Shown here: one piece after another, positions 28,636-38,382 of the stretch
Numbering within the stretch: position 1 is the stretch's first letter
Layout: each line of letters starts with the position of its first letter
Source: Candidatus Hydrogenedentota bacterium
GTDB lineage: Bacteria > Hydrogenedentota > Hydrogenedentia > Hydrogenedentales > JAEUWI01
DNA: 64,000 nucleotides
Direction of reading: 5' to 3'
Assembly: GCA_016791475.1 (NCBI GenBank)
Contig: JAEUWI010000013.1
Coordinates: 73,029 to 137,028 of the forward strand
Notes under the pieces: model-generated
Seen by the model: the letters and a program-made list of their open reading frames with translations, nothing else
The model's database searches: none
Told to the model about the DNA's origin: nothing
Made by a program: the position numbers and the translations under genes

Positions 28636-30030
28636 TTACTGCGCTTCCAGGCCGTGTTTTTGCAGGCGATAGCGCAGGGAGCGGGGGGTCAGCCCGAGGA
28701 GGCGGGCCGCCTTTTTCTGGGAGTAGCGACTTTTTTCCAGGGCCTGTTTCAGCAAGTCGATTTCGAGATCGGCGATGAGGCGCTCCATATCCATGCCCTC
28801 ATCGGGGACGTGGGCGGCGGCCGGGGAGACGCCGGTTTCGGGGGTATAGTTGCGCAGGTTCTCGGGGAGGTCGTCCAGGCCGATCATGTCCGTGCCGCAG
28901 AGGGCCACGGCTCTTTCCATCACGTTGCCGAGTTCGCGAACATTGCCCGGCCAGTGGTAGCCATTGAGGGCGTTCTGGGCCTCGGCGCTGATTTCCAGGC
29001 TCTCCCGTCCCATATTCTTTGCGTGCTGTTTCACAAAGTGGCGGCACAGCAGGGGGATGTCGTCGCGGCGCTCGCGAAGCGGCGGCACATGGAGGGGGAT
29101 CACGTTCAGGCGGTAGTAGAGGTCGCTCCGAAAGCTGCCTTCCTCCGCCATCTTTTCCAGGTCGCGGTTCGTCGCCGAAATCAGTCGCACATCCACCTTG
29201 ATGTCGGTGGTGCTGCCCACGGGCGTCACCGTGTTGTTGTCGAGCACGCGCAGGAGCTTTACCTGGAGCATGAGGGGCATTTCGCCGATTTCATCCAGGA
29301 AGATCGTGCCGCCATTGGCAACAACGAACAGGCCCTCCTTGTCTTCCACCGCGCCGGTGAAAGCGCCCTTCTTGTGGCCAAAGAGCTCGCTCTCCAGCAG
29401 ATTCTCGGGGATGCCGCCGCAGTTGATGGCCACGAAGGGCTTGCTGGCGCGGTTGCTCAGGTTGTGAAGGGCCCGGGCCACCAGTTCCTTACCCGCGCCG
29501 CTTTCGCCATGGACCGCCACCGTGCTCGGCAGCGCGGCGACGCGCCGGATCATCTGCTGCACTTTTTCAATGGCGGCGCTCTTGCCGATCATGTTGCCGA
29601 TGTCGCCCTGCTGGGCCTGCTGCTTGCGCAGGGCCACGTTTTCCCGAAGGAGATTGCGCTGGGCGATGGCGCGCTCGATGAGAATTCGAATCTCGTCGTT
29701 TTTGAAGGGCTTCATCATGTAATCGGCAGCGCCGCGTTTCATCGCCTCGATGGCGGTTTCCACGGAGCCGTGGGCCGTCATCATGATGGCGGGGGTGCCG
29801 GGCGAGTGCTCCTGGAGCCAGGTCAGCAGCTTCATGCCCGCGTTGCGGTCCTGGCCCATGAAGAGGTCCGTGAGCACCACATCGTAGTGGGCCTGGCCGA
29901 GCTGTTCGATGGCGCCCCCGGCATCACTCGCGGTGTCCACGTCGTAGCCGTCATTCTGCAGCACGATAACCATGAGCTCGCGCATGCTGAGCTCGTCGTC
30001 CACGACCAGTACCCGATGCTTTAGAGACAC
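28636..30030 (-). CDS. pilR: Sigma-54-dependent response regulator, PilR/NtrC family
   Basis: 464 residues with the standard three domains. The receiver domain has acidic pocket D11/D12, phosphoacceptor D55 and a lysine in MMKPFKND. The AAA+ domain has GESGAGKE (Walker A) and the sigma-54 contact loop GAFTGA. A Fis-type helix-turn-helix lies at the C-terminus (LLKQALEKSRYSQKKAARLLG). It should activate sigma-54 promoters, classically pilin genes, when phosphorylated by the kinase whose gene overlaps it by 10 bases. No pilin gene lies in the window, so its targets are probably elsewhere. Confidence 0.93.
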   Translation of the reverse strand: MSLKHRVLVVDDELSMRELMVIVLQNDGYDVDTASDAGGAIEQLGQAHYDVVLTDLFMGQDRNAGMKLLTWLQEHSPGTPAIMMTAHGSVETAIEAMKRGAADYMMKPFKNDEIRILIERAIAQRNLLRENVALRKQQAQQGDIGNMIGKSAAIEKVQQMIRRVAALPSTVAVHGESGAGKELVARALHNLSNRASKPFVAINCGGIPENLLESELFGHKKGAFTGAVEDKEGLFVVANGGTIFLDEIGEMPLMLQVKLLRVLDNNTVTPVGSTTDIKVDVRLISATNRDLEKMAEEGSFRSDLYYRLNVIPLHVPPLRERRDDIPLLCRHFVKQHAKNMGRESLEISAEAQNALNGYHWPGNVRELGNVMERAVALCGTDMIGLDDLPENLRNYTPETGVSPAAAHVPDEGMDMERLIADLEIDLLKQALEKSRYSQKKAARLLGLTPRSLRYRLQKHGLEAQ

Positions 30031-31658
30031 GAGTTTTCACTCCTGAGTTCCCGCGCCGACTCGTGACCTGATTCATGGGCGCGAGGCAGCCGGACAATGA
30101 TAGAGGTGCCGCCGCCGGAACGCGACGCGGCCTGGATCGTACCATCATGGGCGGTGATAATGCGCATGCACACGGCCAGGCCCATGCCCACGCCGCGGGC
30201 TTTTTCGGTGTAGAAGGGCTCAAAGATGCGCGCGACCTTGTCCGGGGCGATGCCGGGGCCTTCGTCATCGAAGCGAATCTCCACCGGGCCCCGGTTTTCA
30301 TTCTGGGAGACGATGATGCGAAGGCATCCCTTGCCGTCCATGGCTTCGACGGCATTCTGGCCCAGGTTCATGAAGACCTGCCAGATCTGGGTCTTGTCGC
30401 CCATGATCATGCAGGGCTCGGGCGTTTCGTAGAGCTCCACCGTACAGCCGGCTTCCCCGCCATACTTGCCGCCGAGCAACTCTTCCACCTCCCGCGCCAC
30501 CTCCTGTACGTCCAGCAGGGCGTATCGCCGACCTGGGTCGCGGGCGAAGTCCAGGAAGCCCGTCACGATCTCGTTCAGGTGGTCGGACTCCCGCACGGCA
30601 ATGGCCGCGAGCCGCTCCACCAGCGAGGGCGAGTTGATGTTGCGCTGGAGCTCGTCCATGCTGCCTCGGATCGAGGCCACGGGATTGCGGATTTCGTGGG
30701 CCAGCCCGGCGGAGAGTTCACCGATCACCGCCATGCGGTCCTGCTTCTGGAGCTCCTTGCGCATGCGCGCCATCTCGGTGAGGTCGGTGAAGGAGGCGAT
30801 GAGGCCGGTGACGTGGTCGTGGGCGTCGCGGATGCGGTTGGTTGTGAGGCCGAGCAGCTTCGATTCGTTTTCGCCGACCTGGGCGTTGAATTCGTAGCTG
30901 GTAAAGTCCTTCTTGAGGCGGAGCGCGGTGGTCACGGGGCATTCCGCGCCCGACTCCTGGATCATGATGCCGTCCACGTGGAGGCCGGCCACATTCTCTT
31001 CCACGAGATTGAGGATGCCGCAGGCCGCCTTGTTCATGGCGATGACCACGCCCCTTGCGTCGGTGATGAGGAATCCGCTGCTGAGATTGTCCAGGATCTC
31101 GCGTTGAAATTGCTTCATCCGACTGACGCGCTGGTTCCAGTAGCCGCTGATGAAGGCCGTAAAGAAAAAGGCCAGCCCCTGAATCAGGTAGTGATACCAG
31201 AGGGCCAGTTGATCGGGCGCGTCCGCGGCCTTGATGAAGGTCTGAAACAGCATGAAAACGGAGGCCATGGTGGCGAAGACGAAGCCCTGGAGCAGGCCCA
31301 TGAGCACGCCGGCCTCCAGGATAACGATCACCAGCAGGAAGGTGAAGAAACTCTGGTGGCCGCCGGTAAAGCTGATCGTGGCGGCGACGACGCCGAAGTC
31401 CACCAGCATCTGGGTCCAGGTGAGTATGGCGGGGATGGAATGCTCCCGGCGAAGGACCACCAGATACCAGAGGCTGCTGGCCAGCGCCGCGGCGTAGATG
31501 CCCGTCACGAAGGTGAGGTAGGCGCCCCCCTCCCGCGCGATGAGGTGTGCGCCGGACGCGACCACCACCAGCATCCCGATACGCGCCGCGCCCACGAACC
31601 AGAGCCAGCTCGCCGGGCCGTCGTAGGTGGGGCTTAAGTACTCCAGAAATTTTTTCAT
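30021..31658 (-). CDS. pilS: Membrane histidine kinase, PilS-like
   Basis: 545 residues. Six hydrophobic helices (residues about 15-175) form the input domain, as in PilS. A PAS domain follows (ILDNLSSGFLITDARGVVIAMNKAA), then HisKA with phosphoacceptor in GLAHEIRNPVASIRGS and HATPase with MNLGQNAVEAMDG, DDEGPGIAPDKV and GVGMGLAVC. The gene overlaps pilR by 10 bases and lies 19 bases downstream of pilT, so the pair clearly works with the pilus motor. PilS in Pseudomonas senses pilin in the membrane; whether this one does is inference. Confidence 0.88.
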   Translation of the reverse strand: MKKFLEYLSPTYDGPASWLWFVGAARIGMLVVVASGAHLIAREGGAYLTFVTGIYAAALASSLWYLVVLRREHSIPAILTWTQMLVDFGVVAATISFTGGHQSFFTFLLVIVILEAGVLMGLLQGFVFATMASVFMLFQTFIKAADAPDQLALWYHYLIQGLAFFFTAFISGYWNQRVSRMKQFQREILDNLSSGFLITDARGVVIAMNKAACGILNLVEENVAGLHVDGIMIQESGAECPVTTALRLKKDFTSYEFNAQVGENESKLLGLTTNRIRDAHDHVTGLIASFTDLTEMARMRKELQKQDRMAVIGELSAGLAHEIRNPVASIRGSMDELQRNINSPSLVERLAAIAVRESDHLNEIVTGFLDFARDPGRRYALLDVQEVAREVEELLGGKYGGEAGCTVELYETPEPCMIMGDKTQIWQVFMNLGQNAVEAMDGKGCLRIIVSQNENRGPVEIRFDDEGPGIAPDKVARIFEPFYTEKARGVGMGLAVCMRIITAHDGTIQAASRSGGGTSIIVRLPRAHESGHESARELRSENSCL

Positions 31659-31677: not shown

Positions 31678-32751
31678 TCACATTCCCTTTTCCATCAGGT
31701 GCTGGAGCCCTTCAGGATCGGCGCTGCGCTTGAAAGCCATCTCCGTGGTGATGATGCCGCGTTTCGCCAGGCGATACAGGGACTGGTTCATGGTCAACAT
31801 GCCTTCGCCCTTGCCGATTTCGATCATGGAGGGGATCTGTTCCAGCTTTTCCGCGCGGATAAGGGAGCGAATGGCGGGATTTGCGAGCATGATTTCCATG
31901 GCGAGCACGCGTCCCATGCCGTCGGCCCTGGGTACGAGCTGCTGCACCACCACCGCCTCCAGCACGAAGGAAAGCTGGGTGCGCACCTGCGCCTGCTGCG
32001 CGGCGGGAAACACGTCGATGATACGGTTCATGGTCTGGAGGGCGTCGTTCGTGTGCAGGGTGGCGAAGGCCAGGTGGCCGGTTTCGGCCACGGTCAGCGC
32101 CGCCTGGATCGTTTCCGTATCGCGCATTTCGCCGATGAGAATCACGTCCGGGTCCTGGCGCAGCACGCGCTTGAGCGCCGCGCTGAACGAATTGGTGTCC
32201 GCGTTGATTTCGCGCTGGTTGACCACGCTGCGGTTGTGGCGGTGCAAGTATTCGATGGGGTCCTCAATAGTGATGATATGGGTATTGCGCTCGCGGTTGA
32301 TCTTGTCCACGATCGACGCCAGCGTCGTGGACTTGCCGCTGCCGGTGGGACCGCACACGAGGACCAGGCCGAAAGGCTTGTACGCGAAATCGGCGATGAC
32401 CCGGGGCAGGCCCAACTGCTCGAAGGAAAGAATTTCAAAGGGGATGGAGCGGAAGGCCGCCACCACCGAGCCGCGATCGCGATAGACGTTCAGACGGAAG
32501 CGGCTCAGGCCCTCGATGCCGAAAGAAAGATCGCACTCGCGGGTCGCTTCGAACTCGGCGATCTGGTCTTCGTTCATTACCGTGTAGATGACTTCCTGGG
32601 TCTGATCGGCCGTCAGGCGGGGATAGCCGGGCAGCGCTTCCAGGCCCCCGTGAAGTCGGATCATGGGGGGCGCGCCGACGACGATGTGCATGTCGCTGGC
32701 GCCCGCCTTGATGGCCTTCGTCAGCAATTCCTTGATACTCGGTGTGGACAT
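31678..32751 (-). CDS. pilT: Type IV pilus retraction ATPase PilT
   Basis: 357 residues, normal length for PilT. N-terminal PAS-like domain (ASDMHIVVGAPPMIRLHG), then Walker A CGPTGSGKSTT, Asp box TIEDPIEYLH, Walker B DPDVILIGEMRD, and His box GHLAFATLHTNDA. The C-terminus retains AIRSLIRAEKLEQIPSMIE, close to the AIRNLIRE motif important for retraction. ATG 32751 is used because GAGGAGG sits five bases upstream; the frame is open to 32775. It disassembles pili by hydrolysing ATP at the inner membrane. Confidence 0.94.
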   Translation of the reverse strand: MSTPSIKELLTKAIKAGASDMHIVVGAPPMIRLHGGLEALPGYPRLTADQTQEVIYTVMNEDQIAEFEATRECDLSFGIEGLSRFRLNVYRDRGSVVAAFRSIPFEILSFEQLGLPRVIADFAYKPFGLVLVCGPTGSGKSTTLASIVDKINRERNTHIITIEDPIEYLHRHNRSVVNQREINADTNSFSAALKRVLRQDPDVILIGEMRDTETIQAALTVAETGHLAFATLHTNDALQTMNRIIDVFPAAQQAQVRTQLSFVLEAVVVQQLVPRADGMGRVLAMEIMLANPAIRSLIRAEKLEQIPSMIEIGKGEGMLTMNQSLYRLAKRGIITTEMAFKRSADPEGLQHLMEKGM

Positions 32752-32871
32752 ACTTCCTCCTCTTCCGCTCGGCATCCCCGTCGGCCCTGCGCGGCGCGCC
32801 CGGCCGGGATGTTTCCCTTAACCCGTGTCTACTGGCGGCGCACCTCCCCTCGGGCGCCCTTCCAGGTTTTC

Positions 32872-34596
32872 TCAGTCTGACGAAGTATGTTCCAGAACCT
32901 GCTCGATCGTGGAGAGGCCCTTTGCCGCTTTGGCGAGGCCGTTCTGCCGCAGGGTCTGCATGCCGCAGGCGATGGCCTGGGCCTTGATCGTGTAGCCCGT
33001 TGCCCGCTCCAGCACGAGCGGTTGCAATTCGGGCCAGTTCAACAATACTTCGATCACCGCCACGCGACCGCGATAGCCGGATTCCTTGCAGCGACTGCAA
33101 CCGCGTCCCCGGACGAACTGGATCTTTTCCAGGTAGTCGAAGCCGCGCCACTGGATGCGGTCCAGGACCTCTTCGGGCACGTTGATCGGCTCCTTGCAAT
33201 CGGTGCAGACGCGCTTGAGGAGGCGCTGTGCGGCGGCCAGGGCCACGGAAGACTGGACGAGGAAGGGCTCTATGCCCATATCGGTCAGTCGGGGGAATAC
33301 GCCCGCCGCGTCATTGGTGTGGAGGGTGCTCAGCACCAGGTGGCCGGTCAAGGCCGCCTTCACGGCCACGTCCGCCGTTTCACCGTCTCGAATTTCGCCG
33401 ACCATCACGATATCCGGGTCCTGGCGCAGAATCTGGCGCAGGGCCGCGGCGAAGGTGAAGCCGATGGTGGACTGCACCTGCACCTGATTCACGCCGAAAA
33501 GGTCGTATTCGATGGGGTCTTCCACCGTTACCACGTTGGTGTCGGGCGAGTTCAATTTGTGCAGCGCGCTGTACAGGGTGGTGGTTTTACCGCTACCGGT
33601 GGGTCCGGTGAGCAGGATCATGCCGTGGGGCAGGTTCAGCGCTTCCTTGAAGGCCGCGATGGGCTGGGGCTCGAAGCCCATGCCTTCCAGGTCGAGGGTC
33701 AGGTTGGACTGGTCCAGCACGCGGAGCACGATCTTTTCGCCGAATTTACACGGCAGGAAACCCACGCGGAAGTCGATCTCGCGGGAGTTATAGCGGATGC
33801 GGAAGCGACCGTCCTGCGGCAGCCGGTGCTCGTCGATTCGGCAACCGCAAAGAATCTTGAAACGGGCGATGATGTTGGCCTGAAGGTGCTTCGGCGGGGC
33901 CTTGGCTTCTTCCAGCGTGCCATCCACGCGGTATCGGATGCGGATGAGCTTTTCGAAGGGCTCGATGTGAATATCGCTTGCGCCCCGTTCCAGGGCGTTG
34001 AAAAGGATCAGCCGCGCCAGCTTCTTGACCGGCTCGTCCTCCGCGCCCACTTCCAGTTTGGACACGTCCTCGATATCATCGGTGGTCTTGAGCTCTTCGA
34101 CCGAGCCTTCGCGGTCTTCTTTGACCATGAGAGCGTCGTAAAGGTCTTCGGCCTTGCCGCCGCCATAGTGCTTGTCAATCGCCGCCGCCAGTTCCGACGC
34201 GACCGCCACCACCGGCTCGATCTCGTAGCTCGTAAGCATTCGCAGATCGTCCAGCGCCATGATATTGAGCGGGTCGGCCATCGCCAGCGTCAGCACGTCG
34301 CCCGTCACGCTGACCGGTAGCATCTGGTACTGGCGGGCGAGGGTCTCGGGTACTTCGGACAGCACTTCCTTCGGGATGGAGTAGTGGGCCACCCGGATAT
34401 GGGGGATCCCGAGCTGTTCGCTCAGCGTGATGACGAGATCCTCTTCCGAGAGGTACTCGTTCTGCACCAGCAGGCTGGGCAGGCTCTGCCCCGTCTGGCG
34501 GTGCTGGTTGATGCATTCCTGAAGCTGCTCCTGCGTGACCAGATTCTGCTCCAGGAGCATATCGGGCAGTCGCTTCTTCGTTGCGCGTGTGGCCAT
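32872..34596 (-). CDS. pilB: Type IV pilus assembly ATPase PilB
   Basis: 574 residues with the full PilB/GspE layout: MshEN-type N-domain (residues about 8-150, RLPDMLLEQNLVTQEQL and LTLAMADPLNIMALDDL), N2 domain (SDIHIEPFEKLIRIRYRVDG), Walker A LTGPTGSGKTTT, Walker B DPDIVMVGEIRDGET, and the zinc-binding Cys pairs CTDC and CSRC in the C-terminal part. The RLG motif used by c-di-GMP-binding MshEN domains reads RLP here, so ligand binding is uncertain. PilB drives pilus extension. The upstream gene encodes a second protein with the same N-domain. Confidence 0.93.
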   Translation of the reverse strand: MATRATKKRLPDMLLEQNLVTQEQLQECINQHRQTGQSLPSLLVQNEYLSEEDLVITLSEQLGIPHIRVAHYSIPKEVLSEVPETLARQYQMLPVSVTGDVLTLAMADPLNIMALDDLRMLTSYEIEPVVAVASELAAAIDKHYGGGKAEDLYDALMVKEDREGSVEELKTTDDIEDVSKLEVGAEDEPVKKLARLILFNALERGASDIHIEPFEKLIRIRYRVDGTLEEAKAPPKHLQANIIARFKILCGCRIDEHRLPQDGRFRIRYNSREIDFRVGFLPCKFGEKIVLRVLDQSNLTLDLEGMGFEPQPIAAFKEALNLPHGMILLTGPTGSGKTTTLYSALHKLNSPDTNVVTVEDPIEYDLFGVNQVQVQSTIGFTFAAALRQILRQDPDIVMVGEIRDGETADVAVKAALTGHLVLSTLHTNDAAGVFPRLTDMGIEPFLVQSSVALAAAQRLLKRVCTDCKEPINVPEEVLDRIQWRGFDYLEKIQFVRGRGCSRCKESGYRGRVAVIEVLLNWPELQPLVLERATGYTIKAQAIACGMQTLRQNGLAKAAKGLSTIEQVLEHTSSD

Positions 34597-34689: not shown

Positions 34690-37197
34690 TCACGCCGCCT
34701 CCTCGCCACCCAGATGGCTGAGTATCTCCGTGGCCAACTCCACCGTCAGCGGTTCGCGCGACATGGCGGCGAAGGCCGCAATTTTACGCAACGAACCCAC
34801 CATCTTGCGGATGTCGTTGGACACCCGCATGGCGATGAGCGACAGGATTTCGTCGGGGATCTGGACGTTGGCGGTGCCCGCGTGGCGGCGCAGGATCTGC
34901 ATCCGCGTGTCCCACTCGGGCGCTTTCAAATCGGCCACGATCCCGCTGGAAAACCGGGAAATAAGGCGCTGCTCCAACAGGCCCAGGCGGTCCGGGGCCT
35001 TATCACTGGCAATAATAATCTGCCGCCCCTGCTGATGCAACACATTGAAGATATGGAAAAATTCCTCCTGCGCCTCCACGCGCCCCCCCATGAACTGAAT
35101 ATCGTCCAGAATCAGCACGTCCCAGTGGCAGTAGTTCTCCCGAAAAGCCTCCTGGGCGTCCGCAGCCAGGGCCTCTTTGAGCCGCCTCGAAAAATGGCTT
35201 GCCGAAACATAGCCCACCCGATGCTTCGGGTGGTTCTGGCGAATGGCATTGCCCGCCGCGCTGATCAGGTGCGTCTTGCCCAGGCCCACATTGCCATAGA
35301 GAAACAGCGGGTTGTACTCGCCGCCGGGCTTCGCCGCCACCGACTGGGCAATGGAAAGGGTAAAGGCATTGGCCTTGCCCGCGAAAAAGCTTTCAAACGT
35401 GAGGGTCTCCAGGGGTACTTCGGCCTCCAGCGCATCCCGCACACGATCATCGCCGGCCATATCGGCGGCTTCGCCCTCGACCGGGACCCCGAAGGAAGAA
35501 ACCGAAGCATGGCGGCTTCGCTGGCCCTGGCGCAGGTTGTGCATCCGCTCGTTCTGCACCAGAGACGCCTCCACCAGTTGCGAAGTCTGCTGGGTTGACT
35601 GGACCGCCGCCTCGATCAACTGGGAGGTCTGCTGGGAAGATTGCACCGCCGCCTCCGCCAGTTCCGCCAGGCGCGCGCTCTGGGCCGCCTGCGCGTCACG
35701 GCTGGCCTCGATTACCTCTTTCATCGTCGCAACCATACCCTGCTGCGAGTCGCGCAGCGCCAATACGATGGCCTCCTGCGCCGCCGCACCATGATCGTTC
35801 TGCGCGGAGTTCGTCCGCATCTGCACGATCAACGTGGCCAGGGCTTCCTGCATCACCCCGCCAATCGTGTCCCGGATCATTTCAGCGAACTGCTCGAAAG
35901 GGGGGGGCGCCTGATCTGGTTTTGCCGAGGCGCGCAGTTGCACCACCACAGAAGCCAACGCTTCCTGCATCGCGCCGCCGATGCTCTCGCGGATGGTCTC
36001 GCCCATGGCGTCGGCCGCGGGGGTTTGCCCCTTGATCGCGCTGATGAGTTCCTGGAGCACCGCCTCCATGCCGGGGCCCGCCGGCTCAACCGGGGGCGGA
36101 GGCACAAGCGCCGCAGTTTCCTTCGGGCGAACGATTTCCTTCAATTCGTCGAGCGTCGCACGGAAGGCCTGCTCAAAGCCCGACCAGTCTGGCGCCGCCG
36201 CCGTTGCGGGCAGTATGGCTGGCGCGATATTCGTCGATGGTCGGTCCAGGGTTCGGAGGGCTTCAGCCATCGCATCGCGCACCGAATCCCGCATGACATT
36301 GCCGAGCACCTCGGGTGAGAAGGCGGGGGCCGGCGGTGCAACCGGAGCCGCGGGGGGCTGCGGGACGACTTCGGCCGCGGGCCGTTCAAAATTCTTCAGG
36401 GCCTCGGCCATGGCATCGCGGATCGAATCGCGCATCACCCCGCCCAGTACTTCGGGCGACAGGGCGGGGGCCGCGGAAACCGGCTCGGACTGCGTTGGCG
36501 CCATGCGCGCCGAAAGCTCCTGGACCACATCGCGCAGTCCCGCCTGGATTGCGCCGACCAGGGCGCCCGTGTCTATGGCGGCGACGGGCGCGGATGGTAC
36601 CTGCGTTGAGGCGGCCGCCAGGGGCGGGGCGGAAGCGGGCGCCGGTTTTGGGGTGGGCTTTGGCGCCAGCTTGGTCAGCCCGAAGCTGGCCATGCTCTCC
36701 TGACTTTCCTTTTTCTGGCTGTCCGCGAAATATTTTTGCGCCGCCTGTTCAAAGTGGGTCCAGTTGCACAGAATCGGCTTGATGCGGAGATCGGGGCAGA
36801 GCGTGCGAATGGCTTCCAGCGCTTCATTATCCAGCGGATCCACCATCGCCACCGTCAAGATACGGCCCAGCTTGTCGATCGGGAGCAAGCCGTATTTGAG
36901 GCATACCTCCTTGGAGATCAGCTTGAGCACTTCCGAGCCCACATCGTAATCGAGAAGACTGATATGGGGAATCTTGCACTGCTTCACGAAGCACGTGTTG
37001 ATATCGTCCTGCGTGGTGTACTTGCGCTGGACGAGGATCTTGCAGAGAAATTCCCCCGTCTTGCTCCGCTCCTCTTCCGCATCGTCCAACTGTGCGCGCG
37101 TCACCAACTGGGCCCCCAGCAACAGATCGACCAAACGCTGCGGCATGACCACCGAGGTGCCGGTTGCATCGGTTACGCTGTGGGTCGGGGCAAGCAT
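34690..37197 (-). CDS. MshEN-like domain fused to amphipathic repeats and a DnaA-type AAA+ module lacking DNA-binding domain IV
   Basis: 835 residues. Residues about 18-158 align with the N-domain of the adjacent PilB ([36 protein letters not shown]). Residues 160-240 are Pro/Ala-rich. Amphipathic repeats follow: [14 protein letters not shown] (about 254-267), [14 protein letters not shown] (301-314), [14 protein letters not shown] (401-414), [14 protein letters not shown] (440-453), then a Gln/Ala coiled coil to about 555. Residues 598-830 are DnaA-like: [25 protein letters not shown] (Walker A), VLILDDIQF (Walker B), sensor 1 IIASDKAP, box [12 protein letters not shown], sensor 2 [11 protein letters not shown]. 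The protein ends there, without the helix-turn-helix of true DnaA. Its position upstream of pilB suggests a pilus-linked ATPase rather than replication. Confidence 0.88.
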
Positions 37198-37527
37198 CGG
37201 TTACGCATAACTCCAGATATGAGGGGCCAAAATACTCCAGCGCAAGACGGGCCATTGCCTGTCCCCGCAGATCCTCCAGGACCTGAAGCCGGTCAACAAC
37301 GGGCCGCAAGCACCCAAAGGGCTGTACACTCGATTGTATCATCGGTCCACGAAACGGTCAAACCAAAAATTGCTACAACCTATTGCATGACAACGTTTTG
37401 GATCGGCTGGAAGGCCGCGGAAAATCGGGCGCATGGGGTTTCCCGCCCATGGATGCGCCGCCGACGCCCTCTTTCGTGCAACTTCGCTCCAGGATACGCG
37501 TGTAAGCGCGCCCGCGCTTCCGCCGGT
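37198..37527. other. Intergenic region
   Basis: 330 bases between the DnaA-like gene start and the lipoprotein stop. It should contain the promoter of the long pil run, but I can point to no convincing -35/-10 or sigma-54 (GG-N10-GC) site and no strong hairpin. Confidence 0.4.
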
Positions 37528-38202
37528 TCAATCATCCGGGATTTCCTGAAAATCATAGACCAGCAGGGCCACGACCCGATCCAGGCCAAAATCGTGACAG
37601 GCCAGGCAGGATTGGTCGGCCCGGACCGGTCCCGCCACGCGAAATCCCGGCCCCTCGTCGAAGCGTTGCAAGGCCGGGCTGGCCTGCGCCTTCGCCCAGC
37701 CCAGCTCCGCCAGCGCGTCCGCCGCAATGGGGGTTGCAGTGTCTTCGCCCGCCACGGGGTGGGCCGCGCCTGCCCACTGGTACGCATAACCATCGGGTTT
37801 AACATAGATCAGCCGGGTCGTCTCCGAGGCCATGCCCCAGGAGTCCCCGTCGATCAGGACCGCGTCGGCATAGGGCCAGATTGCATTTGGGTCGCCGCCC
37901 GGCGCCGCCCCCAGGGCGAAGCGTTCGAGCCAGACGGCGTGGAGTTCCTCCAGGCTCTCCGCATAGGTCCACTCCGCCAGCGGATGGGCCCGCATACCGT
38001 CAAACTCCGGCGCAATCTCCGGCGCCGCCGGAGAAGATGTGGTCGGTGCGGCCTCGACCACGACCGGCGATGGCGCGGGCGCCTCGATTCCTTCCGGCCC
38101 ACAAGCGGAAGCGAAAAGGGCAAGGGCCACCGCCGCCCGGGTCATGCGTCCCGGGCCGGATCGCGTCGTGAAAGGCTGAATAACTTGTGCCAATTTATCC
38201 AT
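37528..38202 (-). CDS. Lipoprotein with single c-type heme motif
   Basis: About 224 residues. A signal sequence ([13 protein letters not shown]) ends in a lipobox whose Cys would be acylated, followed by a Pro/Ala/Ser-rich linker to about residue 65. Near the C-terminus is CLACH, a CxxCH heme c attachment site, with [15 protein letters not shown] after it. The middle ([21 protein letters not shown]) is not a family I can name with confidence. ATG 38202 is preceded by TATAAT, giving a very short leader; ATG 38145 is also possible. It may be an envelope electron-transfer or redox-sensing protein. Confidence 0.72.
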
Positions 38203-38382
38203 TTTCGCTATTATATGCGGGATCTGCCGCACGCGCCCCTGGACCCCATCGGGTGCCCGAAGGGGCCAACGGGAAGCGCGTCCGCCCTCGGGGCACAGTC
38301 TAACCCGGAAGCCCCCGGTCAGGCTACCCGCTCGGAATCCCGATCTTTACCGCCACATCGGCCCCACGAAAGGAATACCACC
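38203..38382. promoter_or_regulatory. Divergent promoter region, lipoprotein and aminotransferase
   Basis: 180 bases between divergent starts. On the minus strand TATAAT lies about ten bases before the lipoprotein ATG (plus positions 38211-38216). No clear -35 accompanies it. On plus, AGGA eight bases before GTG 38383 fixes the aminotransferase start. Confidence 0.45.

What the first reader, a model, noticed from the sequence alone, without database searches (positions are those of the whole stretch)
34690..37197. DnaA-type AAA+ ATPase fused to a pilus-motor N-domain, in the pil operon
The N-terminal 140 residues align with PilB's MshEN-type domain, and the C-terminal 240 residues carry every DnaA motif (Walker A/B, sensor 1, box VII Arg, sensor 2 Arg) yet stop before the DNA-binding domain IV. 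Four near-identical amphipathic repeats lie between. Directly before pilB-pilT-pilS-pilR, this suggests a motor regulator or a new assembly ATPase that borrowed the DnaA oligomerisation engine, possibly linking pilus extension to the replication or nucleotide state. I know of no described protein with this layout, but I could not search.
Basis: partly seen in the sequence, partly recalled or inferred. Interest (0 to 1): 0.88.

Follow-up and report, generated by a model that had tools for sequence, protein, structure and literature searches.

The report
DnaA-type ATPase in pilus operon
A little-known bacterial phylum, and at least one other, encode next to their pilus motor a protein that joins a signal-sensing domain found on pilus motors to the ATP engine of the DNA-replication starter DnaA without its DNA-binding part, which suggests that the replication engine was reused as a regulator of pili.

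Summary
Window 34690-37197 (-) is one 835-aa ORF: an MshEN domain (about residues 19-160), a long Pro/Ala-rich linker with helical repeats and a long helix, and a complete DnaA domain III AAA+ module (594-830). Domain IV is absent. It lies directly before pilB-pilT-pilS-pilR. The genome (Candidatus Hydrogenedentota) also has a normal DnaA. The fusion occurs in about 55 of 68 Hydrogenedentota genomes, as a full-length ORF in 33 aligned copies, and always just upstream of pilB where flanks exist (28 of 28 loci). A supported sister clade (98/92) sits in the same pilB-T-S-R-C operon in another, unnamed phylum. More distant MshEN-DnaA fusions exist in four further lineages, one also before pilB. 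ATPase, arginine-finger and sensor residues are at least 97% conserved. In Hydrogenedentota the ssDNA-contact residues are rewritten, so origin opening is unlikely. The c-di-GMP motif is nearly complete in most orthologues but decayed in the window's genus. I found no published description. Most likely it is an ATP-switched regulator of the type IV pilus motor, docking through MshEN and sensing c-di-GMP in most relatives; the mechanism is inferred. The claimed link to replication has no support, but the architecture is new and conserved.

The parts
34690..37197 (-). MshEN-linker-DnaA domain III fusion protein, 835 aa
36718..37143 (-). MshEN domain (residues 19-160)
   Evidence: Pfam MshEN, AlphaFold and Foldseek 5htl/8pfa/9g1w
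36979..37137 (-). tandem c-di-GMP motif positions (residues 21-73), degraded in this copy (7/12 key residues)
   Evidence: NCBIfam c-di-GMP_motif 27.9 bits against a cut-off of 38
35788..36717 (-). Pro/Ala-rich linker with two pairs of amphipathic helical repeats (residues 161-470), variable between orthologues
35527..35787 (-). predicted long helix (residues 471-557)
34708..35418 (-). DnaA domain III AAA+ module (residues 594-830), no domain IV
35269..35295 (-). Walker A (GNVGLGKTH, residues 635-643)
   Evidence: invariant G635, V637, G638, G640, K641, T642, H643
35101..35115 (-). Walker B (LILDD, residues 695-699)
34954..34968 (-). box VII with arginine finger (RLISR, residues 744-748)
   Evidence: R748 invariant
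34807..34809 (-). sensor 2 arginine R797
   Evidence: invariant
37333..37361 (-). sigma-70-like promoter match upstream of the fusion gene (TTGACC-17-TACAAT, TG before -10)
   Evidence: consensus match only
32872..34596 (-). pilB, 93 bases downstream
   Evidence: TIGR02538 1.8e-191
31678..32775 (-). pilT
   Evidence: TIGR01420 477.5 bits, over cut-off
30021..31658 (-). pilS-like sensor kinase
   Evidence: 6TM_PilS, HisKA, HATPase_c
28636..30030 (-). pilR-like sigma-54 response regulator

Best explanation
It is a conserved type IV pilus accessory ATPase, not a replication initiator. Its MshEN domain, a relative of the PilB N-domain, docks it at the pilus base (PilM/PilN platform or PilB) and in most orthologues probably senses c-di-GMP. 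Its DnaA-type AAA+ module binds ATP and assembles head-to-tail through the arginine finger, and this ATP-gated assembly acts as a switch on loading or activity of the PilB motor encoded next to it. SHOWN: architecture, conservation of all ATPase residues, strict pilB synteny in Hydrogenedentota and a second phylum, separate canonical DnaA, loss of domain IV. INFERRED: docking partner, oligomer form, direction of the effect on PilB, c-di-GMP control.
For: Synteny: pilB is the next gene in the same direction in 28/28 loci with downstream sequence, usually within about 150 bases and sometimes overlapping, and again in three genomes of another phylum with pilB-T-S-R-C; the AAA+ domains of both form one clade, 98/92. 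A more distant MshEN-DnaA-DnaA protein also precedes pilB, separated by one ORF, in a third phylum. Residues K178, D235/D236, R285, R334 (E. coli numbering) are 100% and R281 97% conserved. c-di-GMP key residues: most orthologues 11/12; the second-phylum orthologue passes the NCBIfam c-di-GMP motif cut-off (61.3 against 38 bits). PilB N-domains bind PilM homologues and PilZ (PMC8389850). In the same genome MshEN is fused to GGDEF, cNMP-binding and FHA domains, i.e. it is a signalling module. No genome lacking pilB has the fusion.
Against: No interaction or ATPase data. Two near-complete genomes (G013, G014) have pilB-pilT without the fusion, and two (G022, G025) seem to keep only the MshEN part, so the AAA+ module is dispensable there. 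Fusions in the G191 and G204 lineages are not near pil genes within about 9 kb. Co-absence with pilB is weak evidence because the genes are adjacent and most of those genomes are incomplete. The c-di-GMP site is degraded in this copy and Arg38 is Phe/Tyr in nearly all copies.
Confidence: 0.5

Rival explanations
1. Hda-like regulator: the AAA+ module pairs with DnaA-ATP and stimulates its hydrolysis, tying replication initiation to the pilus or surface state.
For: Domain III without domain IV resembles Hda; arginine finger and sensor 2 are intact; Foldseek matches Hda 3bos/5x06.
Against: Scores far below Hda equivalog cut-offs (107 against 194.8 bits). Closer in sequence and structure to DnaA itself. 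The N-terminus is an MshEN domain, not Hda's short clamp-binding end (clamp-motif not tested by a dedicated search). Near-complete genomes (G003, G013, G014) have dnaA but no fusion. The gene is tied to pilB, not to dnaA or dnaN.
Confidence: 0.12
2. DNA-uptake factor: the AAA+ filament binds incoming ssDNA in type IV pilus-mediated transformation.
For: DnaA domain III binds ssDNA; the gene sits in a T4P operon; the second-phylum orthologues appear to keep Ile and Arg at the two ssDNA-contact positions (read from sequences).
Against: In Hydrogenedentota the V211 position is Ala/Gly/Lys/Ser and R245 is Glu/Asp in 96% of copies, a charge reversal. No competence genes were looked for.
Confidence: 0.1
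3. General signalling AAA+ output (STAND/NtrC-like) not specific to pili, co-transcribed with pil genes because both answer to the PilS/PilR input.
For: In the G223 lineage the same AAA+ type is fused to response-regulator receivers; other fusions lie away from pil genes; DnaA-type AAA+ genes precede histidine kinase-regulator pairs in Elusimicrobiota.
Against: Strict pilB adjacency through a whole phylum and its sister clade in another is more than co-regulation usually preserves.
Confidence: 0.2
4. Scaffold only: a pole- or pilus-base scaffold in which the ATPase is a vestige.
For: Long, length-variable linker with helical repeats; MshEN-only versions exist.
Against: Catalytic, arginine-finger and sensor residues are the best conserved columns of the protein.
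Confidence: 0.08

Closest known systems
DnaA (chromosomal replication initiator), domain III
   Same: AAA+ fold and all nucleotide-handling motifs; 38-40% identity; TM 0.91 to 8bv3
   Different: no domain I, no DNA-binding domain IV; in Hydrogenedentota the ssDNA-contact residues are altered; separate clade; the genome has its own DnaA
Hda / HdaA
   Same: DnaA-type domain III ending after the lid
   Different: MshEN and long linker at the N-terminus; well below Hda model cut-offs; pil operon context
MshEN domains of PilB, MshE, PilF and XpsE
   Same: two-part MshEN fold; 32% identity with the neighbouring PilB; tandem c-di-GMP motif in most orthologues
   Different: no T2SSE motor domain; Phe/Tyr in place of Arg38; closer to MshEN of signalling proteins
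FimX-PilZ-PilB type regulators of type IV pili
   Same: accessory proteins proposed to tune PilB at the pilus base in response to c-di-GMP
   Different: unrelated sequences; here the sensor is fused to an AAA+ ATPase
NtrC-type (sigma-54) AAA+ regulators
   Same: sensor domain controlling an AAA+ engine
   Different: no sigma-54 activation domain or HTH match; DnaA-clade AAA+

Membership tests
DnaA initiator | domain III AAA+ with Walker A/B, box VII Arg, sensor 2 Arg | tested here: met
DnaA initiator | domain IV DNA-binding helix-turn-helix | tested here: not met
   ORF ends just after the lid; NCBIfam DnaA profile matched only to 338/437
DnaA initiator | ssDNA-contact residues (V211, R245 in E. 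coli) | tested here: not met
   R245 to Glu/Asp in 96%; V211 position Ala/Gly/Lys/Ser
DnaA initiator | NCBIfam equivalog cut-off | tested here: not met
   286.5 against 343.9 bits
Hda | Hda equivalog score | tested here: not met
   107.5 against 194.8 bits
Hda | N-terminal sliding-clamp-binding motif | not tested
   no dedicated search; the N-terminus is an MshEN domain
MshEN domain | Pfam MshEN score and fold | tested here: met
   58.5 against 23.1 bits; Foldseek 5htl 8e-8
c-di-GMP-binding MshEN | tandem RLGxx...Q motifs | tested here: not met
   window copy 7/12 key residues and 27.9 against 38 bits; most orthologues 11/12, second-phylum orthologue 61.3 bits
PilB/GspE motor | T2SSE ATPase domain | tested here: not met
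   no T2SSE match
type IV pilus operon gene | conserved adjacency to pilB | tested here: met
   28/28 loci; three genomes of another phylum
type IV pilus operon gene | required for pilus function | not testable with these tools
   needs genetics

The most novel reading that the evidence does not exclude
The DnaA domain III engine, cut loose from its DNA-binding domain, is a recurrent signal-transduction module in under-studied phyla (MshEN-DnaA, REC-DnaA, TPR-DnaA, tandem DnaA-DnaA), and one branch of it is a dedicated type IV pilus switch that couples c-di-GMP to ATP-gated assembly at the motor.
Probability: 0.4. Interest if true: 0.8.

Novelty: new variant of a known kind. Interest (0 to 1): 0.62.

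Why it matters
DnaA-type AAA+ modules are known in replication initiation, its inactivation and helicase loading. A conserved family that places this engine behind a c-di-GMP-type sensor in pilus operons would give DnaA's ATP switch a non-replicative job and name a new candidate regulator of PilB. Both are directly testable with a purified protein or a deletion.

Tried and rejected
Frame artefact: rejected by 33 intact orthologues. Split DnaA with a separate domain IV partner: no such ORF in the operon, and the genome has a whole DnaA. One-phylum oddity: rejected after wider searches. 'Nitrospiraceae' locus L061 as a transfer to Nitrospirota: the same contig coordinates appear as G045, placed in the window's own order, so the record title is probably wrong. 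Single origin of all MshEN-DnaA fusions: not supported, the label needs 6 changes on the tree, but deep nodes are weak and the root is unknown. Co-absence with pilB as a function test: weak because the genes are adjacent. Rfam: nothing. Literature: nothing in open-access full text; supplements were not readable. The tblastn was an uninformative query and is not used. The second AlphaFold job was not used.

Full report
OBSERVATION. The ORF at 34690-37197 (-) encodes 835 residues. Pfam finds MshEN (75-159, 6.7e-16) and Bac_DnaA (598-755, 2.6e-55); NCBIfam finds PilB's N-terminal part (22-225) and DnaA up to profile position 338 of 437. AlphaFold with 28 sequences gives two confident domains, 22-160 and 600-830, joined by a low-confidence linker with short helices and one long helix 471-557. 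Foldseek matches DnaA domain III (8btg, 8bv3), then Hda, and MshE/PilF MshEN structures. The ORF stops right after the AAA+ lid, so domain IV is absent. The repeats are two pairs, not four near-identical copies.

SURROUNDINGS. Downstream on the same strand are pilB (93 bases away), pilT, pilS and pilR. A sigma-70-like promoter match lies about 136 bases upstream of the start codon and no terminator-like site lies between the fusion gene and pilB on this strand, consistent with the fusion gene leading the operon.

PHYLUM. Related loci come from Candidatus Hydrogenedentota. Of 68 genomes of the phylum I count about 55 with the fusion's AAA+ part. Thirty-three distinct full-length ORFs of 596-963 aa align. 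In all 28 loci with downstream sequence the next gene is pilB. The linker varies in length and sequence; both end domains are conserved. Seven genomes lack a pilB match and all lack the fusion, but most are incomplete and the genes are neighbours. G013 and G014 have pilB without it, and G022 and G025 seem to keep only MshEN.

BEYOND THE PHYLUM. A survey of mostly one genome per family and follow-up found: (a) a sister clade (98/92) in an unnamed phylum (G246, G099, G386; 3 of 3 genomes) with the same gene order, fusion-pilB-pilT-pilS-pilR-pilC, and a short linker; (b) in the G223 lineage, a pil locus with several MshEN and DnaA-type proteins, including a 1993-aa MshEN-DnaA...DnaA protein, shortly before pilB, pilT, pilC, pilS, pilR; (c) MshEN-DnaA fusions in the G191, G204 and G201 lineages, for which no pil genes were found within about 9 kb; (d) receiver-DnaA fusions in the G223 lineage. 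On an 84-row AAA+ tree Hydrogenedentota fusions are one clade (100/100) apart from canonical DnaA.

RESIDUES. Walker A lysine, Walker B aspartates, arginine finger and sensor 2 arginine are invariant in Hydrogenedentota fusions; box VII R281 is 97%. The positions of E. coli V211 and R245, which touch ssDNA (own knowledge), are changed: R245 to Glu/Asp in 96%. The E. coli DnaA ruler sequence was written from memory and used only for numbering; it aligned on all motifs. Second-phylum orthologues appear to keep Ile and Arg there (read by eye), so the loss of the ssDNA-contact residues is particular to Hydrogenedentota.

C-DI-GMP. Scored on 12 contact positions defined in PMC5013675, most orthologues have 11 of 12, Arg38 being Phe or Tyr in 32 of 33. 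The window copy and three relatives of its genus have 7 of 12. The NCBIfam motif model agrees: 27.9 bits (cut-off 38) for the window copy, 46.0 for its PilB, 61.3 for a second-phylum orthologue. The family is probably c-di-GMP-responsive; this copy probably is not.

MODULARITY. In the same genome closely related MshEN domains head a GGDEF protein, a cNMP-binding protein and an FHA protein, so MshEN here is a mobile signalling domain. PMC5013675 lists REC, HD-GYP, CheA, CheX, cyclase and kinase partners but no DnaA in the section on domain partners.

MECHANISM. PilB N-domains bind PilM homologues, and PilZ in Xanthomonas (PMC8389850). By homology the MshEN domain can place the protein at the pilus base. 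The intact AAA+ module should assemble with ATP as DnaA does. A switch acting on PilB is the simplest reading of the fixed gene pair. These steps are inference. The replication link is not supported: DnaA is separate and complete, and dnaA persists where the fusion is absent.

LIMITS. Literature was limited to open-access full text. No complex prediction was possible.

Noticed in passing
L083, L104, L103, L073, L110: Sumerlaeota/BRC1 and one unclassified bin: 1364-1786 aa proteins with a C-terminal DnaA AAA+ domain; the three scanned with Pfam (L073, L083, L104) have long TPR arrays, and L104 also has a weak N-terminal CHC2 (DnaG-type) zinc ribbon match.
   Followed up: partly
L068, L069, L111 (Endomicrobia), L175 (G191): DnaA-type AAA+ proteins of 590-709 aa without domain IV lie about 0.4-0.9 kb after pilT.
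   Followed up: partly
L070, L072, L080: DnaA-type AAA+ protein with Cys-rich ribbon-like segments (seen in L070, L072), followed by a histidine kinase-like ORF and a small receiver-like ORF.
   Followed up: no
L151, L189, L190: Response-regulator receiver domains fused to a DnaA-type AAA+ output domain; this lineage (G223) has 12 DnaA-type domains in one genome.
   Followed up: partly
L156, L157, L158: About 650-700 aa proteins with two DnaA AAA+ domains in tandem (G180, G136), some next to DUF4388/TPR or MshEN-like genes.
   Followed up: no
L174:5476-6549, G386:C166: A short 357-aa DnaA with a domain IV motif but no domains I-II, next to two PilB/GspE-type genes (G246), besides a full DnaA elsewhere.
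   Followed up: no
L232, L233 (G022, G025): Fusion gene seems reduced to MshEN plus linker without AAA+; in G022 pilB follows directly.
   Followed up: partly
L004 (about 4 kb left of the window on the same contig): MshEN fused to a cNMP-binding domain.
   Followed up: no
window 37528-38232 (-): ORF of 234 aa with a CLACH haem-binding-like motif and no Pfam or NCBIfam match.
   Followed up: no
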